IMG/VR virus record: IMGVR_UViG_3300049827_000226
Location: 1-22,111 of that record
Reading direction: 5' to 3' (one strand)
Length of the DNA: 22,111 bases
Origin: a virus
The number at the start of each line of letters is the position of its first letter. Position 1 is the stretch's first letter. Position numbers and translations under genes: made by a program. The notes under the pieces are model-generated. The model was not told the DNA's origin. It was given only the letters and a program-made list of their open reading frames with translations, and made no database searches. Of the stretch, positions 487 to 11,156 are shown one piece after another.

Positions 487-705
487 ATGAGTTCAGAAGA
501 GAAAGTAGAAGGCAGATATATCGCGATACTGCGGTATGAGAATAGTTTGCCGGTATATCACACACCTCCTCAGATTATATCGGCAGACAATTTCTATGAT
601 GCAGTTGATATGTTTCATCGGTTAGGGGTATCCTGTTTTGATGTAGTTCCTTATGTAGAAGATGATAAATTGTTTACAGATGAAGAGTTTGAAAATGAAG
701 CCTAA
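487..705 (+). CDS. Unknown 72-residue protein
   Basis: Small soluble protein of unknown function. It opens with SSEEKVEGRYIAILRY, which reads like a charged lead-in followed by a beta strand, and ends in an acidic tail (DEEFENEA). There is no signal peptide, membrane segment, cysteine cluster or recognised motif. It starts two bases after the previous stop and overlaps the next gene by 11 bases if that gene starts at 695, which fits tight translational coupling within the accessory cassette. Codon use is like that of its neighbours. Confidence 0.7.
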   Translation: MSSEEKVEGRYIAILRYENSLPVYHTPPQIISADNFYDAVDMFHRLGVSCFDVVPYVEDDKLFTDEEFENEA

Positions 706-1039
706 GATTATATTTATGAAGCGTCTCTGGTTAGGTAAATACCGGGGAATTACAATCTATCCGTTTATATTTATTTATGTTGAAGGACTACCTGCAACAG
801 AGAAATTTAGGTTGGTTCATCATGAACAGATTCATATTCGTCAGGCTGCTGAAGAATATGTGGTGTGGTTCTACATAAAATACCTTTGGTATTATGTAGC
901 CAATTTATTTAAGGGAATGAACTTCGATAAGGCTTATCGGAATATTCCTTATGAGAGAGAAGCGTATGATAATCAGAGAAGGATTGGTTATCTGGCAAAT
1001 AGACCAAGATTTGCATACAGACAATATAGAAAGCCATGA
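695..1039 (+). CDS. Small HExxH (zincin-like) protein
   Basis: This 114-residue protein carries HEQIH at residues 43-47, the HExxH signature of zinc metallopeptidases, and a downstream YEREAY (86-91). The latter resembles the E-x-E-A-D type element that supplies the third zinc ligand in M48-like gluzincins. Between them lies an aromatic, hydrophobic stretch (about 54-72) that could be an amphipathic or membrane-associated helix. I recall short proteins of this layout in Bacteroides phages, with no proven activity. ATG 695 is preferred because it gives a short overlap with the upstream gene; ATG 716 is an alternative, and an in-frame ATG at 662 would overlap too far. The last four bases (ATGA) overlap the next gene. 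Peptidase activity is inferred only from the motif. Confidence 0.75.
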
Positions 1040-1796: not shown

Positions 1797-2084
1797 ATGG
1801 CAAAATTTAGAAATAAATCAATAGTAGTTGAAGCATTTCAACTTACATATGAAATGGCAAAAGGTCAAAGTCCTTGCCCTATTTGGTTTGCAGAAGCAAC
1901 GGAAAAAGGCGATGTGAAAGTTTTTGTAACAGACAAAATTCACAATTCGCAGTATTCAGAAATCAAAACACTGAATGGTATAATAATAGCAGATGCAAAA
2001 GATTATATCGTTAAAGGTATTGAAGGGGAAATTTATCCTTGCAAATCTGATATTTTTGAAGCTTTTTACGAAAAAGTAGATTGA
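1797..2084 (+). CDS. Small conserved phage protein (KYRKKPVVVEAFQ-type)
   Basis: This 95-residue protein follows a pattern I recognise from many phages. It has an N-terminal FRNKSIVVEAFQLT, a central PIWFAEA, and a C-terminal GIEGEIYPCKSDIFEAFYE. In that family the conserved parts are the VEAFQ strand, a 'V-G-D-x-I-V-x-G-x-x-G-E' type turn (here DYIVKGIEGEIYP), and the PCK-x-DIFE ending. No biochemical role is established that I know of. The start is the first ATG after the previous gene, and the next gene begins almost directly after its stop, so the two are probably coupled. Confidence 0.8.
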   Translation: MAKFRNKSIVVEAFQLTYEMAKGQSPCPIWFAEATEKGDVKVFVTDKIHNSQYSEIKTLNGIIIADAKDYIVKGIEGEIYPCKSDIFEAFYEKVD

Positions 2085-2383: not shown

Positions 2384-2516
2384 TTACCTTCTGTCAGACG
2401 ACAGACTATCGCAAATTAAACATGTAACACATGGAGATTTTCAGAATTGGAAAGATCATCGTAAGGCTGCAAAGCATGGAAAGGTTTTAAAAACGCAAGA
2501 CAATGGACAAATTTGA
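2340..2516 (+). CDS. Small 58-residue phage protein (DFGNYLLS motif)
   Basis: A short gene bridges the previous and following genes, overlapping the first by 44 bases and the second by 14. Its protein has a positively charged N-terminus (MKTVFSKKDL), the motif DFGNYLLSD at residues 12-20, and DFQNWK at 33-38, followed by a lysine-rich end. I recall small Bacteroides phage proteins with the same 'DFGNYLLS...DF.NWK' arrangement, role unknown. Without this gene, 2384-2502 would be an empty gap in an otherwise fully coding region. The overlaps suggest coupled translation. Confidence 0.72.
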   Translation: MKTVFSKKDLTDFGNYLLSDDRLSQIKHVTHGDFQNWKDHRKAAKHGKVLKTQDNGQI

Positions 2517-2799
2517 TTTCGGTGTAGCACTGATGCTTCTTAGAAGAAATGATGTTGCTGTCAGAAGAGCGAGTTGGCACGAAAGTATGTGTATATTTTT
2601 AAATTCTGAAGGTGAATGTGAATATAATACGTTCCAACAGCATACAGGTAATCAGTTATTTAAACCTCCTTATAATATTAGAATTCATCAGCATATTGAT
2701 TTGAAAGCCGGTGATAGTGACTATGTGATAGGATGGACACCAACCCAAAATGATTTGTTTGCAGATGATTGGGAAGTATATAATGGTAAACTGAAGTAA
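2503..2799 (+). CDS. DUF2829 / Tad2-like protein (candidate anti-Thoeris)
   Basis: This 98-residue protein shows the landmarks of the DUF2829 family: an FG-x-AL start with a short helix (6-14), a 'V-x-R-x-x-W' element (VRRASW, 20-25), a hydrophobic strand (IFL, 31-33), and the hallmark C-terminal GWTPTQNDLFADDWEV at 77-92. Phage DUF2829 proteins include Tad2, which binds and removes the signalling nucleotide made by the Thoeris defence system. Family membership is read directly from these motifs; the anti-defence role here is inferred, because the family is broad and not all members are shown to act this way. The region between residues 35 and 58 appears divergent. It begins inside the end of the 58-residue gene and sits among small accessory genes, a usual place for counter-defence proteins. 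Confidence 0.8.
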   Translation: MDKFDFGVALMLLRRNDVAVRRASWHESMCIFLNSEGECEYNTFQQHTGNQLFKPPYNIRIHQHIDLKAGDSDYVIGWTPTQNDLFADDWEVYNGKLK

Positions 2800-4224: not shown

Positions 4225-4459
4225 AGCAGCTCGAAGAAAAGAGTTAAAAGGTTTAATCAAATTGCAGCAGAGATTTACCCGAAGCTATACAATAAAGGCA
4301 CAAGCATTTGCAAAGGATGTACCTGAAGAAGAATATGAGAGTGTAAAAAGCGGTACTCATTCAGATAAAGCATTGTGTGATAGGTATAAATCGTTGAAGG
4401 AACTTACTGAAAAGCTGATGCATACAAACAGAATGATTAAAGAATGTATGAATGGATGA
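4208..4459 (+). CDS. Small basic helical protein before TerL
   Basis: This 83-residue protein is predicted almost entirely helical. The N-terminus is strongly basic (RAARRKELKGLIKLQQRF), the middle is acidic (VPEEEYES), and the last 25 residues form another helix. The start could be ATG 4208 or ATG 4217. It overlaps the previous gene by 17 bases and TerL by 8 bases. A short basic helical protein directly before the large terminase gene is where many phages encode the small terminase subunit, but this is shorter than usual and lacks a visible helix-turn-helix, so the role is unproven. Confidence 0.72.
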   Translation: MKVMNRAARRKELKGLIKLQQRFTRSYTIKAQAFAKDVPEEEYESVKSGTHSDKALCDRYKSLKELTEKLMHTNRMIKECMNG

Positions 4460-6341
4460 AATTATAATAAAGAATCAACCGGATTGTATTCTTCCTAAGT
4501 CCTTCTTTGAAGGGCGATTTATACCGAAAGTACACCCTGAATCTCTGGATTGGGAACAGTGGTGGGATGAACAGATAAATCGTTGTCTGAATGGATGGAG
4601 TGACGGTGGGTATGAGATACCCGGTAATTATTATTATCATCTCAACATGAAGAAGATCAACATGTTGAATGAGTTTGGTAAACCTTCCTTTGATCATCCC
4701 TATTTTGCATTTGAAGATCAACAGTTATTTAATGATGTTGGTCTCGCGCGTAGTCAGGGGAAAGGATTACTCTTGATAACAGGTCGTGGTTTTGGTAAGT
4801 CGTTTGGTGCTTCCTCGATAGTGGAGCACCAATTTGTTTTTTATGAGGCTTCAGAGTGTATCATATCTGCATCAAATGACTTTTTTGCAACAAACCTCTG
4901 GAGTAAGATAGAACTTGGATTAAACTCCCTTCATCCTACAATACGTCCTAATTTCCTACGAAAGAAACTCGATTATCGAGAATCAGGATTTCAGTTTAAG
5001 GATGATGCGGGTGTTGAAAGCATTGTTGGATATATGTCCAAGATGCATAAGGTAGTATATGATAATGATCCCGGTCGTACTCGTGGTACTCGCCCCGATA
5101 TTCATATATTTGAAGAAATTGGTTCATGGACAGGTGCAGCAAGTCTTACAGATTGTTATGGAATGACAGAAGCATCTTGGTGGAGAGGTAAACACTTTAC
5201 TTGTTTTCCATTCTTAATCGGAACAGGTGGTCAGATGAAACAAGGTGCTTCAGTAGCTGCAAAGATTATGTTTCATGATCCTGATGCATTTAATCTTCTT
5301 GCTTTTGAATATAAAGGTCGTCGTACTTGTAAGTTCGTACCGGCATATAGAAAATTTGAAGGATTTTATGAACGTAGTGGTGTATCAGATGAAGTAGGTG
5401 CTAAAGAATTCCTTGATACCAGACGTGAAAAGAAGAAGACGAATCTGAAGAACTTTCAGCAGGAAATTCAGGAATTTCCATTTGAACCTGAAGAGGCATT
5501 CATGCTTACCGGTGGTAATAGTTTACCAACGGATGTAATGTATGACAGACTTTCAATTATTGTAAAGACTCCGGAGCTTGCATCTGTTGTGCAGACAGGT
5601 GATCTTGAATGGCTTGATAAGTCAGATATTAAGAAGGGTGTTAAATGGGTACAGAATAAGAAGGGTGTATTTCAGATAGTAGAGCATCCGTTATATGTAG
5701 ATGGTAGAACACCAGATAATCTATATATAGGTGGATGTGACTCATACGATGCTGCCGCAGAAAACATACAAGATAATGCTAATCGCTCAGGTGGAGCAGA
5801 ATATATATACAAGCGTTTCTGGAAACCATCTGTAACAGGTAGAATGTTTGTAGCGAGATTAGTCGAAAGACCTGATGATCCGGAAGAGTTTTATTGGAAC
5901 ACTGTAAAATTAAATATGTACTATGGTTGTAAAATGTTGTATGAACATACTAAATTAGGCATTGTAAGACATTACATTACAAATAAGCTTACAAAATATC
6001 TATATCCTAAACCAGATTTAGTATCTTTGGGTGTAATAAAGAAGACTCAAACTACGAATAAGTTTGGTGTTGCAATGCCGATTGAAGTTAAGCGTCACGT
6101 AATTAGTAAGTATGGATCGTATATAAAAGATAACATTGATAACATGTTCTTCCGTGAACAGTTAGAAGATGGTATCAATTTTGTGTTTGGTTCATCGAAG
6201 TTTGATGAAACGATGGCTGCCGCAATTGCGTTACTTGGAGATGAAGACATGTATAATGTGAAAATCGAAGAGGAAAAGAAAGAAAGTTTAGTATTTCCTG
6301 TTTACAGGAGAGATGCCAAAGGCAAATTAATATTTAACTAA
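4452..6341 (+). CDS. terL: Terminase large subunit (TerL)
   Basis: This 629-residue protein is the DNA-packaging motor and cutting enzyme. The ATPase domain has Walker A GRGFGKS (111-117) and a Walker B strand ending in acidic residues, PDIHIFEE (215-222), with E221/E222 as the catalytic glutamate candidates. The RNase H-like nuclease domain follows: LYIGGCDSYD places D430 and D433 at the metal site, E498 is a second candidate ligand (LYEHTK), and D585 lies in FDETMAAAIALL near the C-terminus. Order and length fit phage TerL proteins. It would dock on the portal encoded next, one base downstream, and feed DNA into the head, cutting the concatemer at the end. No intron, frameshift or missing key residue is seen. 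Confidence 0.95.
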   Translation: MDEIIIKNQPDCILPKSFFEGRFIPKVHPESLDWEQWWDEQINRCLNGWSDGGYEIPGNYYYHLNMKKINMLNEFGKPSFDHPYFAFEDQQLFNDVGLARSQGKGLLLITGRGFGKSFGASSIVEHQFVFYEASECIISASNDFFATNLWSKIELGLNSLHPTIRPNFLRKKLDYRESGFQFKDDAGVESIVGYMSKMHKVVYDNDPGRTRGTRPDIHIFEEIGSWTGAASLTDCYGMTEASWWRGKHFTCFPFLIGTGGQMKQGASVAAKIMFHDPDAFNLLAFEYKGRRTCKFVPAYRKFEGFYERSGVSDEVGAKEFLDTRREKKKTNLKNFQQEIQEFPFEPEEAFMLTGGNSLPTDVMYDRLSIIVKTPELASVVQTGDLEWLDKSDIKKGVKWVQNKKGVFQIVEHPLYVDGRTPDNLYIGGCDSYDAAAENIQDNANRSGGAEYIYKRFWKPSVTGRMFVARLVERPDDPEEFYWNTVKLNMYYGCKMLYEHTKLGIVRHYITNKLTKYLYPKPDLVSLGVIKKTQTTNKFGVAMPIEVKRHVISKYGSYIKDNIDNMFFREQLEDGINFVFGSSKFDETMAAAIALLGDEDMYNVKIEEEKKESLVFPVYRRDAKGKLIFN

Positions 6342-6342
6342 G

Positions 6343-8613
6343 ATGAGTTCTACGGAATATGCGAGTTTGAGCGTTGGTGTAAGACCAAAACAAAACATTC
6401 CAGAAAATCTGAAAGATGAAGAGTGGGCAAAGCGAAATGTCGATTGGTGCGTTTCAATGAGTCCAATTTTCGTAAATCCTCCGGAAGCTGATTTATATGA
6501 TAGATATAATGGTGTGCGTAGCGAAGAAGCTTTTAATCATATTACGAATACTTTTGGTATTGAATTCCCTGCCGGTAAGCTAAAACATATTCCTCTCGCA
6601 AGACCTTTACTCAATGTACTTCAGGGTGAAGTAGAAGAAAGACCTCTCAATTTTATAGTTCGCGCTGAAGATACAGACGCTGTAAATCAAAAACTGGAAC
6701 AGATATCCACACAATTGCTGGATACAATGGTTCAATTGATTCGTTCCGGTCAACCTCTCGACGTACAAATAGATCAAATTGAAAAATATTATAAGACTGA
6801 TTTCCAGACAGAACTTGAAATTGGTACTCACCATGCCTTGAATGCTTATATTAATAAGCATCATCTTGAGAGAAAATTCTTTGATTGTTTCAGAGATAAA
6901 ACTATTACCGGTAGAGAATACTATCGTGTAAGAATCAATCGTATCGGTGAAGACCCAATTTTTGAATCAATTCGTCCGGGACATCTTTACTATCCTTGGG
7001 ATAATAAGGAGTGGGTAAAAGAATGTGATTGGTGTGTATATCCAATGCAAATGACTCCGGTACAAATACTGGACTCTTTTGGTGAGAAACTGGAACCTGA
7101 TGATCGCAATCGTTTGGAAGACATGATTGATATGTATTCCCGCGATTCGTATAAACTTCGTGGTGCTGATGAAGCAGACAGGATGTTAAACAACGCAGAT
7201 GATTACAGGGATTACATGTCGCATTTCACGAATAAGATTACTGTTTATTTTACAGAATGGAAGTCAATTCGCAAAGTCTATTTTATTCAGAACCCCAATA
7301 AATACGTGCCCGGAGCAGACTTCGTGAAGTTTATTCAGGAAGATAAACTTGAAGAACTCAACGGTGCAAAGCGTAAGAATCTTCAGGTACGATATGTTCA
7401 GGATTTATGGCAAGGTGTAAGGATTGGTGATACAATTCACGTCGATTTGGGTAAGGTTAAATATCCGGTTCGTAGTCTGAGTGAACCTTCTAAGGTGTAT
7501 CTTACCTTTAACGGACCTACCTATAATGGTCGTGTTAAACCTTATTCATTGGTAAAGCAAACCAATGACTTACAAGACCTTTACGATGTATTACATTATC
7601 ATAAGGAGAATTTGATTGCCATGTCCGGTACGAAAGGTTCGTATATGGATTTATCGCAATTACCTCATTTTGGTGATCCGGAAGCAGAAGGAGATAGTCA
7701 GTTTACGCATAACCTCAAGATGTTCTTATACTATAAGAAGTTGGGTGTTGCATTTATTGATAGAGCAAAAGAAAGTGCTGATAAATCATTTAACCAGTTT
7801 GGTACGTATGATGATACTGTTGGACAAGGATTAAATGTGGTACTTTCAATGATTCAGCATATTGAAGAAATAGCAGGTCGTTTGATTGGTGTTAATAGGC
7901 AACGTCTTGGTGCTATTGCAAACCGTGAAGGAAAAGGTACTACGGAACATGCTATTATGCAGTCGAATCTTGTGACAGAAGCAATCTTTAATGAACATGA
8001 TGAATTTGTACGTCATGCTTTGGAAGATATTTTGAATGCTTGTAGAATAACATGGAAGAATGGTTATACTGGTATATATACATCAGATCAGTATACTCAG
8101 AATATATTCACGCTTGATCCATCATTTGCATTATCAGATTTTGGTATCTATATTACCAACAGATTTAGTGATGCAAGAAGTATCGGTGAGATAAAAGAAT
8201 TTGCGTATCAAATGGTGGGTAAGAGTTTACTTGAATTTGAAGATATATTACCTTTGTTCCGTAAATCAAATCTTAAAGATGTTGAAAAGACAATCAGTAA
8301 GAATCTTGAGACACGTAAGAAAGCAATTAATGAGCAGCAACAACAAGCTGCTGCTTTGGAAATGCAAATGCGAAATGCGCGTGAGCAAAGTGAAATTCAG
8401 AAGATTCAGGCTGAAATTCAGAAGATTCTTTCTGATATACAGTTAAATCAAAAGATGGCAGAAATAGAAGAAAGTACGCTTAGTTTAAAAGAGAAAGAGT
8501 TGACACAAGATCAGCAGAATGAAAGTGAACATCTCGCATTAGAGGCTAAACAGCTTGATGTTGCGTCTGCACAAAAAGTAAGTAGTTCAACAGAAGTTAA
8601 AAACAAAAAGTAA
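6343..8613 (+). CDS. Portal protein
   Basis: This 756-residue protein starts one base after TerL, the standard place for a portal, and its length fits the large portals of crAss-like phages. The N-terminal half includes an arginine-rich LARPLLNVLQGEVEERPL region and the sequence NKEWVKECDWCVYPMQM, consistent with clip and wing parts. Residues ~470-560 include long helices (NVVLSMIQHIEEIAGRLIG) typical of the portal stem and wing. The C-terminal ~90 residues form a Gln/Glu-rich coiled coil with EIQKIQAEIQKILSDIQ, which would give the barrel or crown inside the head. A portal forms a twelve-subunit ring through which DNA enters and leaves. The call rests mainly on order, size and this layout. 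Confidence 0.88.
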   Translation: MSSTEYASLSVGVRPKQNIPENLKDEEWAKRNVDWCVSMSPIFVNPPEADLYDRYNGVRSEEAFNHITNTFGIEFPAGKLKHIPLARPLLNVLQGEVEERPLNFIVRAEDTDAVNQKLEQISTQLLDTMVQLIRSGQPLDVQIDQIEKYYKTDFQTELEIGTHHALNAYINKHHLERKFFDCFRDKTITGREYYRVRINRIGEDPIFESIRPGHLYYPWDNKEWVKECDWCVYPMQMTPVQILDSFGEKLEPDDRNRLEDMIDMYSRDSYKLRGADEADRMLNNADDYRDYMSHFTNKITVYFTEWKSIRKVYFIQNPNKYVPGADFVKFIQEDKLEELNGAKRKNLQVRYVQDLWQGVRIGDTIHVDLGKVKYPVRSLSEPSKVYLTFNGPTYNGRVKPYSLVKQTNDLQDLYDVLHYHKENLIAMSGTKGSYMDLSQLPHFGDPEAEGDSQFTHNLKMFLYYKKLGVAFIDRAKESADKSFNQFGTYDDTVGQGLNVVLSMIQHIEEIAGRLIGVNRQRLGAIANREGKGTTEHAIMQSNLVTEAIFNEHDEFVRHALEDILNACRITWKNGYTGIYTSDQYTQNIFTLDPSFALSDFGIYITNRFSDARSIGEIKEFAYQMVGKSLLEFEDILPLFRKSNLKDVEKTISKNLETRKKAINEQQQQAAALEMQMRNAREQSEIQKIQAEIQKILSDIQLNQKMAEIEESTLSLKEKELTQDQQNESEHLALEAKQLDVASAQKVSSSTEVKNKK
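8391..8427 (+). repeat. 16-base direct repeat in portal coiled coil
   Basis: TGAAATTCAGAAGATT occurs at 8391-8406 and again at 8412-8427, offset by 21 bases or exactly seven codons. It encodes the repeated EIQKI of the portal C-terminal helix, so each copy is one heptad of the coiled coil. It looks like a local duplication that lengthens or keeps the helix in register. Confidence 0.7.
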
Positions 8614-8615
8614 TC

Positions 8616-9671
8616 ATGATTAACGAAGCACAAGTAGCAGATGGAGTAAATGATGTAATGGAGAATGAAGAAGAACTTCTCCAATACTTAAATGCTGATG
8701 GTAAAAAACCAACAGATAAACCTGCTGATGATCCCGGAACAAATGATCCCGCCGATATTGCCGGTGCAGCCGGTGTAGATAAAGGTGCAGGTGAAGGTGA
8801 AGATGATGAAGAAAAAGAGAAGCTCACAGAATATAACAATACTATTGAGTATTTGAATGAGCGTTATAATCTTAATCTCAATGTATCTACTCTTCCTGAA
8901 AATTTAACTCAGGAACAAGAAGCTGAACTTATTGGTGAGTTATATGGAAAAGTATTACAAGATAGTAATCTTAAACTTGCTGAATATCAACAGATTGACA
9001 ATATTTTAAAAGATAAAGAGGTTGCTGATTTCATCGCTGCAAAACGTGATGGGAAAACAATGAAGGACTTCGTTACGCTGTACGCAGGAAGTGCCGTTGG
9101 AAAAACTGATGAAGAAGTTGTCAAAGACAGTCTTCGTAAGCAGTTCCCAACAATGTCTGATACAGATATACAGGAAAGCATTGATGCTCTCAAAGATCGT
9201 AACAAGCTTGCTGGAATGGCAAGTACAGCACGTGAAAGGGCAATCACAGAAGAACAAGAGAAGAAAAGAAGCGAAGAAGAAAGTCAGAAGCAGCAAGCAA
9301 TACTCGATGAGCAGAAGCGTGCTGAAGATGTTCGTGTCTATGCTGAGTACGTTGGGAAACTCAATACGGTATATGGTGTACCGGTTGATGAAACAATGAA
9401 AAAGCAACTCATTCTGGCTGCAACACAAACCGATGAAAAAGGTTACACATTTTTAGACAAAGCGTTACAAAGTGACGAGGGTGTGTTACTGGCTACAATG
9501 GGATTGTTGCATCTGGAAAAATTGATACGTGCATCCGGTACGACAAACAAGAATCGAGTTCGAAATGACTTAATGAGTTTACTTACGAGTGACCCGAAAG
9601 AATTACAAAGTAGTTCAGCCGTTGAACAAAATGATGGAAACTTCAATGTCAACCTTGCGAATCGTTTTTAA
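8616..9671 (+). CDS. Acidic coiled-coil protein, candidate head scaffold
   Basis: This 351-residue protein lies between portal and capsid genes, the usual place of a scaffolding protein or a scaffold/protease. The N-terminal region (about 28-70) is disordered, rich in Asp, Gly, Pro and Ala (PADDPGTNDPADIAGAAG). A mostly helical body follows, with a highly charged coiled coil around residues 205-245 (EEQEKKRSEEESQKQQ). The end (NVNLANRF) may be a capsid-docking tail. It has no Ser-His-Asp protease pattern that I can find. A scaffold would fill and shape the procapsid and then leave. The call is inferred from position and composition; an internal core protein is the main alternative. Confidence 0.72.
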   Translation: MINEAQVADGVNDVMENEEELLQYLNADGKKPTDKPADDPGTNDPADIAGAAGVDKGAGEGEDDEEKEKLTEYNNTIEYLNERYNLNLNVSTLPENLTQEQEAELIGELYGKVLQDSNLKLAEYQQIDNILKDKEVADFIAAKRDGKTMKDFVTLYAGSAVGKTDEEVVKDSLRKQFPTMSDTDIQESIDALKDRNKLAGMASTARERAITEEQEKKRSEEESQKQQAILDEQKRAEDVRVYAEYVGKLNTVYGVPVDETMKKQLILAATQTDEKGYTFLDKALQSDEGVLLATMGLLHLEKLIRASGTTNKNRVRNDLMSLLTSDPKELQSSSAVEQNDGNFNVNLANRF

Positions 9672-9692
9672 CATTTAAAACTTAATCTTAAA

Positions 9693-11156
9693 ATGAGAAT
9701 CGTAAGCCGAATAAATCCCAATGTCTTGAATAGCAAGGCAATGGCGACAATGAAAGACCTGTCAAAGGTTTTCAACGAAGCGCCTAATATGGCAGCTAAA
9801 ACAATCCGCCTGTATCCGTGGAACTCAATTTCCATGTTTACTGAGGGTCTGGGTGAGATATACAATATCTCTGCAAAGTCAGACAACTTCGTAGGAATCA
9901 ATAAGAATTCCTACAAATGGAAAATTCGTGGACATCAAGTTCCGAAAATCAAATTCGCTGTTCGTGCAACAGGTGGCGCAATTAGTGCCGGATCAACTAT
10001 TGGTGCAAATGGACAATCTTTTGTTGTAGCATTTGAAACTTCATTCTACAATCCGAATGACATCATCAAGTTGGAGAATCACCAATTACTTTTCGTATTG
10101 AGTGAGCCTAACTTCATCAGTGAAGGTGTATTCGAACAGAGTGTGAAATTGAATACCAACAATCCTGCCGAAACTGTAAGCACTACGCTGTTAGTAGCTG
10201 GTAAGGAAAGTGGTTTGAACGGTAATGCTTATCCGGAATTGTCCGACAAAGGATATATCGCAAGTGCGATGGCTGCTGAAGAGCACATTAACTATCTTAC
10301 CAAGGTAAGGTATGATTACTCTTGGTCTGCTGATGCCGCAGCTACAAAGTATCTGATTGAAGATACCGTGCAAATGAATGGAAAATCTGTAACTCAGAAC
10401 CTGATTACAGACAAACTGTTCCTCGATGCAATGGAAATGTATCACTTCAACAAAGAAATGGAGTTGATCTACGGACGTAGCACTGTTGATGCTCGTGGTA
10501 AATGTTTCTTGCAGGATGCAAAAGGACAAGACATTGTAAAAGGTGACGGTCTGATTGCTCAATTGCATGAATCAAGCAAGCAAACCTATACCACTATGTC
10601 GATTGACCTCATCGAGGACGTTCTTACCGACATATCACTTCGTATGCCAAAGAGAACGGGTAACACCATTCTTATGACAACTGGTGCTCAGGGTTACAAA
10701 GAATTCGGTAGAATCATGCGTGCTGAACACAAAGGTTCTTGGGAAAGTGCTGCTGACCAGTATGTACGTACCATCAATGGCAAGGTTCAGTTGGGTGCAA
10801 ACTACAATTCTTATACCTTCCAAGGTAATACCATCATCGTAAACGTGAACAACGTATTCGATCACCCTGCAAACATTTCCGGTAAGGATAGTGAAGGAAG
10901 GGGTCTTGAATCATCTAAATTACTCTTCATCGACGCTTCCAGCTATGATGGAGTTCGTAACCTTCAGATGATTGCGAAAGACGGTCGCTCATTCGTAACC
11001 GGTGATCTCGACGGTGTAGGTGGACAGGATGGTAAAACTTCAGGTAAGGTTGCTACCTCACTTGATGGTTCATCTAAAATCATCATCGGAACAATGGGTT
11101 TAATTCTCCACAACCCATATTCATCTTACATGCTGGAGAAGAAAATAGTTGCATAA
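9693..11156 (+). CDS. Major capsid protein (HK97-fold expected)
   Basis: This 487-residue protein follows the scaffold candidate and has the size of crAss-like major capsid proteins. It is rich in beta-prone and glycine-containing segments. Features consistent with an HK97-type shell protein are an N-terminal arm (about 1-45), a loop region rich in Gly/Ser/Asn (ATGGAISAGSTIGANGQ, ~90-106), and a central helix (TKLFLDAMEMYHFNKEME-like, ~245-260). There is also a TGAQGYKEFGRIMRAE segment of the type seen in phage capsid proteins, and a C-terminal NPYSSYMLEK. The start follows an A-rich leader with no Shine-Dalgarno sequence, as expected for a highly expressed Bacteroidota gene. No Lys-Asn crosslink pair can be assigned by eye. 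Confidence 0.88.
   Translation: MRIVSRINPNVLNSKAMATMKDLSKVFNEAPNMAAKTIRLYPWNSISMFTEGLGEIYNISAKSDNFVGINKNSYKWKIRGHQVPKIKFAVRATGGAISAGSTIGANGQSFVVAFETSFYNPNDIIKLENHQLLFVLSEPNFISEGVFEQSVKLNTNNPAETVSTTLLVAGKESGLNGNAYPELSDKGYIASAMAAEEHINYLTKVRYDYSWSADAAATKYLIEDTVQMNGKSVTQNLITDKLFLDAMEMYHFNKEMELIYGRSTVDARGKCFLQDAKGQDIVKGDGLIAQLHESSKQTYTTMSIDLIEDVLTDISLRMPKRTGNTILMTTGAQGYKEFGRIMRAEHKGSWESAADQYVRTINGKVQLGANYNSYTFQGNTIIVNVNNVFDHPANISGKDSEGRGLESSKLLFIDASSYDGVRNLQMIAKDGRSFVTGDLDGVGGQDGKTSGKVATSLDGSSKIIIGTMGLILHNPYSSYMLEKKIVA

What the first reader, a model, noticed from the sequence alone, without database searches (positions are those of the whole stretch)
2503..2799. Tad2-like (DUF2829) protein: candidate anti-Thoeris counter-defence
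VRRASW (20-25) and GWTPTQNDLFADDWEV (77-92) are hallmarks of DUF2829, the family that includes phage Tad2, which binds the Thoeris signalling nucleotide. The middle of the protein (35-58) looks divergent, so ligand range may differ. Having this gene in a phage of Bacteroidota would extend a counter-defence family known mainly from other hosts.
Basis: partly seen in the sequence, partly recalled or inferred. Interest (0 to 1): 0.65.

Follow-up and report, generated by a model that had tools for sequence, protein, structure and literature searches.

The report
Tad2-like protein in crAss-like phage
A phage related to the gut crAss phages carries a small protein of a known family that soaks up bacterial alarm molecules; the family was already known from such phages, but this copy has an unusual change in a loop thought to touch the alarm molecule.

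Summary
Window 2503-2799 (+) encodes a 98-aa protein over the Pfam Tad2-like cut-off (PF11195, E 3.3e-15). Its predicted fold (pLDDT 90.9) matches only Tad2 structures in the PDB at E <= 1e-3 (24 of 24 hits). The contig is a crAss-like phage, so its host is very probably a bacteroidote.

Tad2-like genes are already on record in phages and prophages of Bacteroidota: ModTad2 from a Myroides prophage, a Phocaeicola phage close to HgmTad2/AcrIIA7, a Bacteroides phage, and crAssphage ctbg_1.

The unusual part is not residues 35-58, which vary across the family. It is the loop at 23-29. Of 129 non-redundant relatives with the C-terminal motif, 127 keep W-N/D-G there. The window has WHES, with the Gly lost and Lys changed. 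The C-terminal pocket half (W78, Q82, D84, A87, D89, W90) is kept. The syntenic copy in a sister crAss-like contig (44% identical) keeps GWNGKN. Sister contigs without the gene show it is an accessory gene.

Best reading: a signal-sponge counter-defence protein whose ligand cannot be predicted. It is a confirmed member of a known family with modest interest, and ligand binding is unproven.

The parts
2503..2799 (+). Tad2-like (PF11195/DUF2829) protein, 98 aa
   Evidence: Pfam 56.8 bits, E 3.3e-15; AF2 pLDDT 90.9; PDB fold hits all Tad2
2566..2589 (+). Residues R22-M29 (RASWHESM), equivalent of the near-invariant R-x-G-W-N-G-K-x-M beta1-beta2 loop; N, G and K lost
   Evidence: alignment of 68; survey of 142 domains
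2731..2778 (+). Residues 77-92 GWTPTQNDLFADDWEV, conserved C-terminal motif (beta4, alpha3 and following strand)
   Evidence: W78, D84, W90 invariant in 68 sequences; Q82, A87, D89 nearly so
1797..2084 (+). PGDYG/phrog_419-like 95-aa protein; the same domain is fused N-terminally to Tad2 in a few other phages or genomes (weak link)
   Evidence: phrog_4502 2.4e-23, phrog_419 3.5e-21; fusions in L009, L010, L106
2807..3598 (+). PD-(D/E)XK exonuclease, directly downstream of the Tad2-like gene; syntenic marker
   Evidence: PF12705 and phrog_298; crAss homologues
4452..6341 (+). Terminase large subunit, crAss-like
   Evidence: phrog_6681 8.6e-76; crAss hits
9693..11156 (+). Major capsid protein, crAss-like
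   Evidence: phrog_11589 6.1e-40; crAss hits

Best explanation
The gene encodes a Tad2-family protein of a crAss-like phage. Most likely it works as its studied relatives do: made during infection, assembled into an oligomer (a tetramer in SPO1 Tad2), it binds and holds a nucleotide alarm signal made by the host (a TIR-made ADP-ribose derivative such as gcADPR or His-ADPR, or a cyclic dinucleotide), so the defence effector stays off. Shown here: family membership, fold, phage context, syntenic relative, and a changed beta1-beta2 loop. Inferred: oligomer, signal binding, counter-defence. The changed loop makes a shifted ligand likely enough that the signal should not be called Thoeris gcADPR without a test.
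For: PF11195 over cut-off. The confident model matches only Tad2 entries in the PDB, including SptTad2-cGG, HgmTad2-cADPR, ModTad2-hisADPR and SPO1 Tad2-gcADPR. The C-terminal half of the pocket motif is kept. Accessory-gene distribution: present in the window, L003 and ctbg_1, absent from L179, L182 and nine crAss references. Among the genes shared with L003 it is the least conserved: 44% identity against 55%, 57% and 71% for the nuclease, the 208-aa protein and TerL, as expected of an arms-race gene. Literature: Tad2 members hold gcADPR, His-ADPR or cyclic dinucleotides (PMC12043709, PMC13299392).
Against: The segment WNGK, kept as W-N/D-G in 127 of 129 comparable domains, reads WHES here, and the beta1-beta2 loop is one of the pocket segments named in PMC12043709. 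The protein is on a long branch and falls outside the clades of the tested Tad2 proteins. No defence system of the host is known. No binding test exists.
Confidence: 0.6

Rival explanations
1. A Tad2-fold protein that has lost signal binding through decay of the beta1-beta2 loop and is now neutral or does something else, for example interacting with another phage or host protein.
For: Loop loss, long branch of 1.19 against 0.52 for L003; ctbg_1, a distant crAss phage with the gene in the same place next to the exonuclease, also has a degenerate loop and C-terminal motif.
Against: The frame is intact and the C-terminal motif fully kept, which plain decay would not favour; AF2 gives a confident Tad2 fold.
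Confidence: 0.2
2. A sponge for cyclic dinucleotides (anti-CBASS), or AcrIIA7-type anti-CRISPR, rather than anti-Thoeris.
For: Best fold hits are SptTad2-cGG and HgmTad2/AcrIIA7; the review ties CDN binding to a long insertion between beta2 and beta5 (PMC12043709); length 98 aa lies between the SPO1 chain (90) and the HgmTad2 chain (104).
Against: The insertion is shorter than in HgmTad2 (alignment) and the protein does not group with HgmTad2.
Confidence: 0.15
3. A transcription regulator, as phrog_643 ('transcriptional regulator') shares the C-terminal motif.
For: phrog_643 match at E 3.6e-6 over residues 71-94.
Against: The match covers only the 24-residue Tad2 motif; no DNA-binding fold in the structure search.
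Confidence: 0.03

Closest known systems
HgmTad2 / AcrIIA7 (PDB 8kbi-8kbm)
   Same: PF11195 fold (TMq 0.69-0.75); C-terminal GW..SQTD..A.DW motif; in the tree it groups with a Phocaeicola phage and Bacteroidota genomes
   Different: Keeps GWNGKGM; longer insertion; about 30% identity; separate clade
ModTad2, Myroides odoratus prophage (PDB 9eib, 8v3e), binds His-ADPR
   Same: Fold; carried by a prophage of a bacteroidote; W-T-P in the C-terminal motif
   Different: 25-29% identity; keeps GWNGKGM; has V in place of Q82; separate clade
SPO1 Tad2 (gp34.65; PDB 8sme-8smg), binds gcADPR
   Same: Fold; W-x-P-[ST]-Q-x-D-x-x-A-x-DW motif
   Different: 27-30% identity; keeps GWNGKNM; Bacillus phage
L003 (IMGVR_UViG_3300023198_000563) Tad2-like protein
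   Same: 44% identity; same crAss-like neighbourhood (nuclease 55%, TerL 71%); sister in the tree (99/88)
   Different: Loop intact (GWNGKN); N-terminal extension; four small genes between it and the nuclease
crAssphage ctbg_1 DUF2829 protein (AXH74485.1)
   Same: Crassvirales; gene lies directly upstream of the PD-(D/E)XK nuclease, with a similarly small gap; loop also degenerate
   Different: 16% identity; most of the C-terminal motif lost as well

Membership tests
Tad2-like (PF11195 / DUF2829) | Curated profile score above gathering cut-off | tested here: met
   56.8 bits against 25
Tad2-like (PF11195 / DUF2829) | Tad2 fold | tested here: met
   AF2 pLDDT 90.9, pTM 0.80; 24 PDB hits at E <= 1e-3, all Tad2/AcrIIA7
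Tad2-like (PF11195 / DUF2829) | C-terminal W..[ST]Q.D..A.DW motif | tested here: met
   W78 T81 Q82 D84 A87 D89 W90
Tad2-like (PF11195 / DUF2829) | R-x-G-W-N-G-K-x-M loop (a near-invariant signature measured here, not a published criterion) | tested here: not met
   RASW-HES-M; W-N/D-G kept in 127 of 129 relatives with the C-terminal motif
Functional Tad2 (signal sponge) | Binds gcADPR, His-ADPR or cyclic dinucleotide | not testable with these tools
   needs purified protein; individual ligand-contact residues were not available in the papers held
Functional Tad2 (signal sponge) | Homotetramer with composite pocket | not testable with these tools
   no complex prediction offered; only the monomer was modelled
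Functional Tad2 (signal sponge) | Rescues phage from Thoeris | not tested
   needs infection assay
Crassvirales-like phage | crAss TerL, portal and MCP homologues in crAss gene order | tested here: met
   phrog_6681, phrog_6547, phrog_11589; tblastn hits to crAss genomes

The most novel reading that the evidence does not exclude
The loop change (N, G and K of WNGK lost) together with the fully kept C-terminal half marks a Tad2 branch of crAss-like phages that has been retuned to a different immune nucleotide, possibly one not yet known to be targeted by Tad2.
Probability: 0.15. Interest if true: 0.6.

Novelty: new member of a known kind. Interest (0 to 1): 0.3.

Why it matters
If it is a working sponge, it shows that crAss-like phages carry counter-defence against nucleotide-signalling immunity, and the loop variant would be a natural test of how Tad2 chooses its ligand. 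As it stands it adds one confirmed, divergent member to a family already known from the same group of phages and hosts.

Tried and rejected
Close relatives of the single protein in viral and genome contigs: none beyond L003. Structure from the single sequence: useless, pLDDT 40.6; it worked with the 68-sequence alignment. PGDYG neighbour as a functional partner: 3 fusions and a few near neighbours in 161 loci, and that domain is in hundreds of phages, so only a weak lead. Tad2 as a fixed crAss core gene: rejected, absent from sister contigs L179 and L182 and from nine crAss references. Double frameshift as cause of the odd loop: I read the other frames of the stretch by eye and none gives RKGWNGKN; one codon lost in the loop and one gained just before it fits best, but assembly error cannot be excluded from one contig. 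An ungapped alignment to L003 pairs W25 with N instead of W; the loop motif is lost in either alignment. Assigning a ligand by clade: not possible, the branch is outside the tested clades. The primary papers on Tad2-ligand contacts are not held.

Full report
OBSERVATION. The ORF at 2503-2799 (+) is real: 98 aa, open from ATG to TAA, with codon-position composition like its neighbours. It passes the Pfam gathering score for PF11195 Tad2-like by a wide margin (56.8 bits against 25, E 3.3e-15). It also matches PHROGs 1048 and 872 and, by sequence alone, all the Tad2 proteins with solved structures. It is the only such match in this 22-kb virus record.

FOLD. With an alignment of 68 sequences AlphaFold2 gives a confident model (mean pLDDT 90.9, pTM 0.80). 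Foldseek against the PDB returns 24 matches at E <= 1e-3, all of them Tad2 or AcrIIA7 entries: SptTad2 with cGG, HgmTad2/AcrIIA7 with cADPR and cGG, ModTad2 with hisADPR, SPO1 Tad2 with gcADPR. The next hit has E 0.44. In the viral library most named hits at E <= 1e-3 are called 'Thoeris anti-defense 2-like' or 'DUF2829'; the rest carry no name. One of the named hits is crAssphage ctbg_1.

WHOSE PHAGE. TerL, portal and MCP (4452-11156) match crAss-like families in PHROGs. TerL and MCP also match crAss genomes at 22-28% identity. TerL hits with a named host are mostly to phages of Bacteroides, Flavobacterium, Cellulophaga and Azobacteroides, so a bacteroidote host is very likely, by inference. 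Nearer kin are a few IMG/VR contigs: L003 (TerL 71%) and L002, L179, L181 and L182 (about 50%).

THE LOOP. Across 68 relatives the first half of the motif reads R-x-G-W-N-G-K-x-M. The window reads R22-A-S-W25-H-E-S-M29: Asn, one Gly and Lys are lost, and the Gly before Trp is Ser. In a survey of 142 non-redundant domains, 129 have the C-terminal motif; of these 127 keep W-N/D-G. The exceptions are the window and L143, which has WHGKG. The retrieval patterns included this loop as well as the C-terminal motif, so the figure is given only for domains that carry the C-terminal motif and could be found without the loop. A review of the SPO1 Tad2 structure lists the beta1-beta2 loop, loop beta3-beta4, strand beta4, loop beta4-alpha3 and helix alpha3 as lining the gcADPR pocket (PMC12043709). 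So the C-terminal part of the pocket is kept and the N-terminal loop is not. Individual contact residues could not be checked because the structure papers are not held.

NEIGHBOURHOOD AND DISTRIBUTION. The gene is followed after 7 bp by a PD-(D/E)XK exonuclease. L003 has a 44% identical copy upstream of the same exonuclease, a homologue of the 208-aa protein, and TerL, with the loop intact. Identity falls from TerL (71%) through the 208-aa protein (57%) and the nuclease (55%) to the Tad2-like protein (44%). Sister contigs L179 and L182 (100.7 kb) have the exonuclease and TerL but no Tad2-like gene, and nine other crAss-like records searched whole have none either. crAssphage ctbg_1 (Intestiviridae), far removed, has a DUF2829 gene directly before its exonuclease, also with a degenerate loop. 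The gene therefore behaves as an accessory gene, and the place before the exonuclease has received it at least twice or kept it since long ago; the data do not decide which.

BACTEROIDOTA IS NOT NEW GROUND. ModTad2, which binds His-ADPR, is from a prophage of Myroides odoratus (PMC13299392; PDB 9eib, 8v3e). HgmTad2/AcrIIA7 groups with Phocaeicola phage PV4-TP1, Prevotella and Dysgonomonas sequences. Bacteroides phage BS-TP1 carries a Tad2 domain fused to a crAss001_48 domain. In a draw of 395 genomes of that phylum two had a match, one of them the genome chosen as centre, so the gene is rare in cellular genomes.

PLACE IN THE FAMILY. In a tree of 142 domains the window pairs with L003 (99/88). 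The pair lies outside the ModTad2 and HgmTad2 clades, and SPO1 is elsewhere. With 92 columns many forks are unresolved. No ligand can be assigned by kinship.

NEIGHBOUR GENE. The 95-aa protein at 1797-2084 is a PGDYG/phrog_419-like protein. That domain is fused to the N-terminus of Tad2 in L009, L010 and L106 and lies within 500 bp in L036 and L091. It is widespread in phages (766 records), so the link is suggestive only.

MECHANISM. Most likely an oligomeric sponge that holds a host immune nucleotide and so keeps the effector off, as shown for its relatives in the literature. Shown here: sequence family, fold, phage context, loop change. Inferred: oligomer, binding, counter-defence. Which signal it binds, or whether it still binds one, is open.

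VERDICT. It is a new, divergent member of a known family, and interest is modest. The loop variant is the one feature worth testing.

Noticed in passing
L163 3976-4281 (MH616963.1, crAssphage ctbg_1): DUF2829 gene directly before the PD-(D/E)XK nuclease, as in the window, although the phages are far apart; its loop and most of its C-terminal motif are degenerate.
   Followed up: partly
L178 about 10677-11069 (NC_055878.1, crAssphage cr108_1): Weak Tad2-like match (17.9 bits, below cut-off) in a 130-aa protein just upstream of the GroEL gene of a Steigviridae phage.
   Followed up: no
L083 7584-8303 (Bacteroides phage BS-TP1): Tad2-like domain fused behind a crAss001_48-related domain (PF21825); L069 has it behind a Phage_gp49_66 domain (PF13876). 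Tad2 domains are often modules of larger phage proteins.
   Followed up: partly
window 1797-2084: PGDYG/phrog_419-like protein 0.4 kb upstream of the Tad2-like gene; the domain is fused to Tad2 in three other loci.
   Followed up: partly
window 662-1039: 125-aa protein matching phrog_15610, annotated 'protease' (E 1.4e-17).
   Followed up: no
L084 4854-5306 (Phocaeicola phage PV4-TP1): Its DUF2829 protein is very close to HgmTad2/AcrIIA7, which points to a Bacteroidales phage as the likely source of that human gut metagenome protein.
   Followed up: partly
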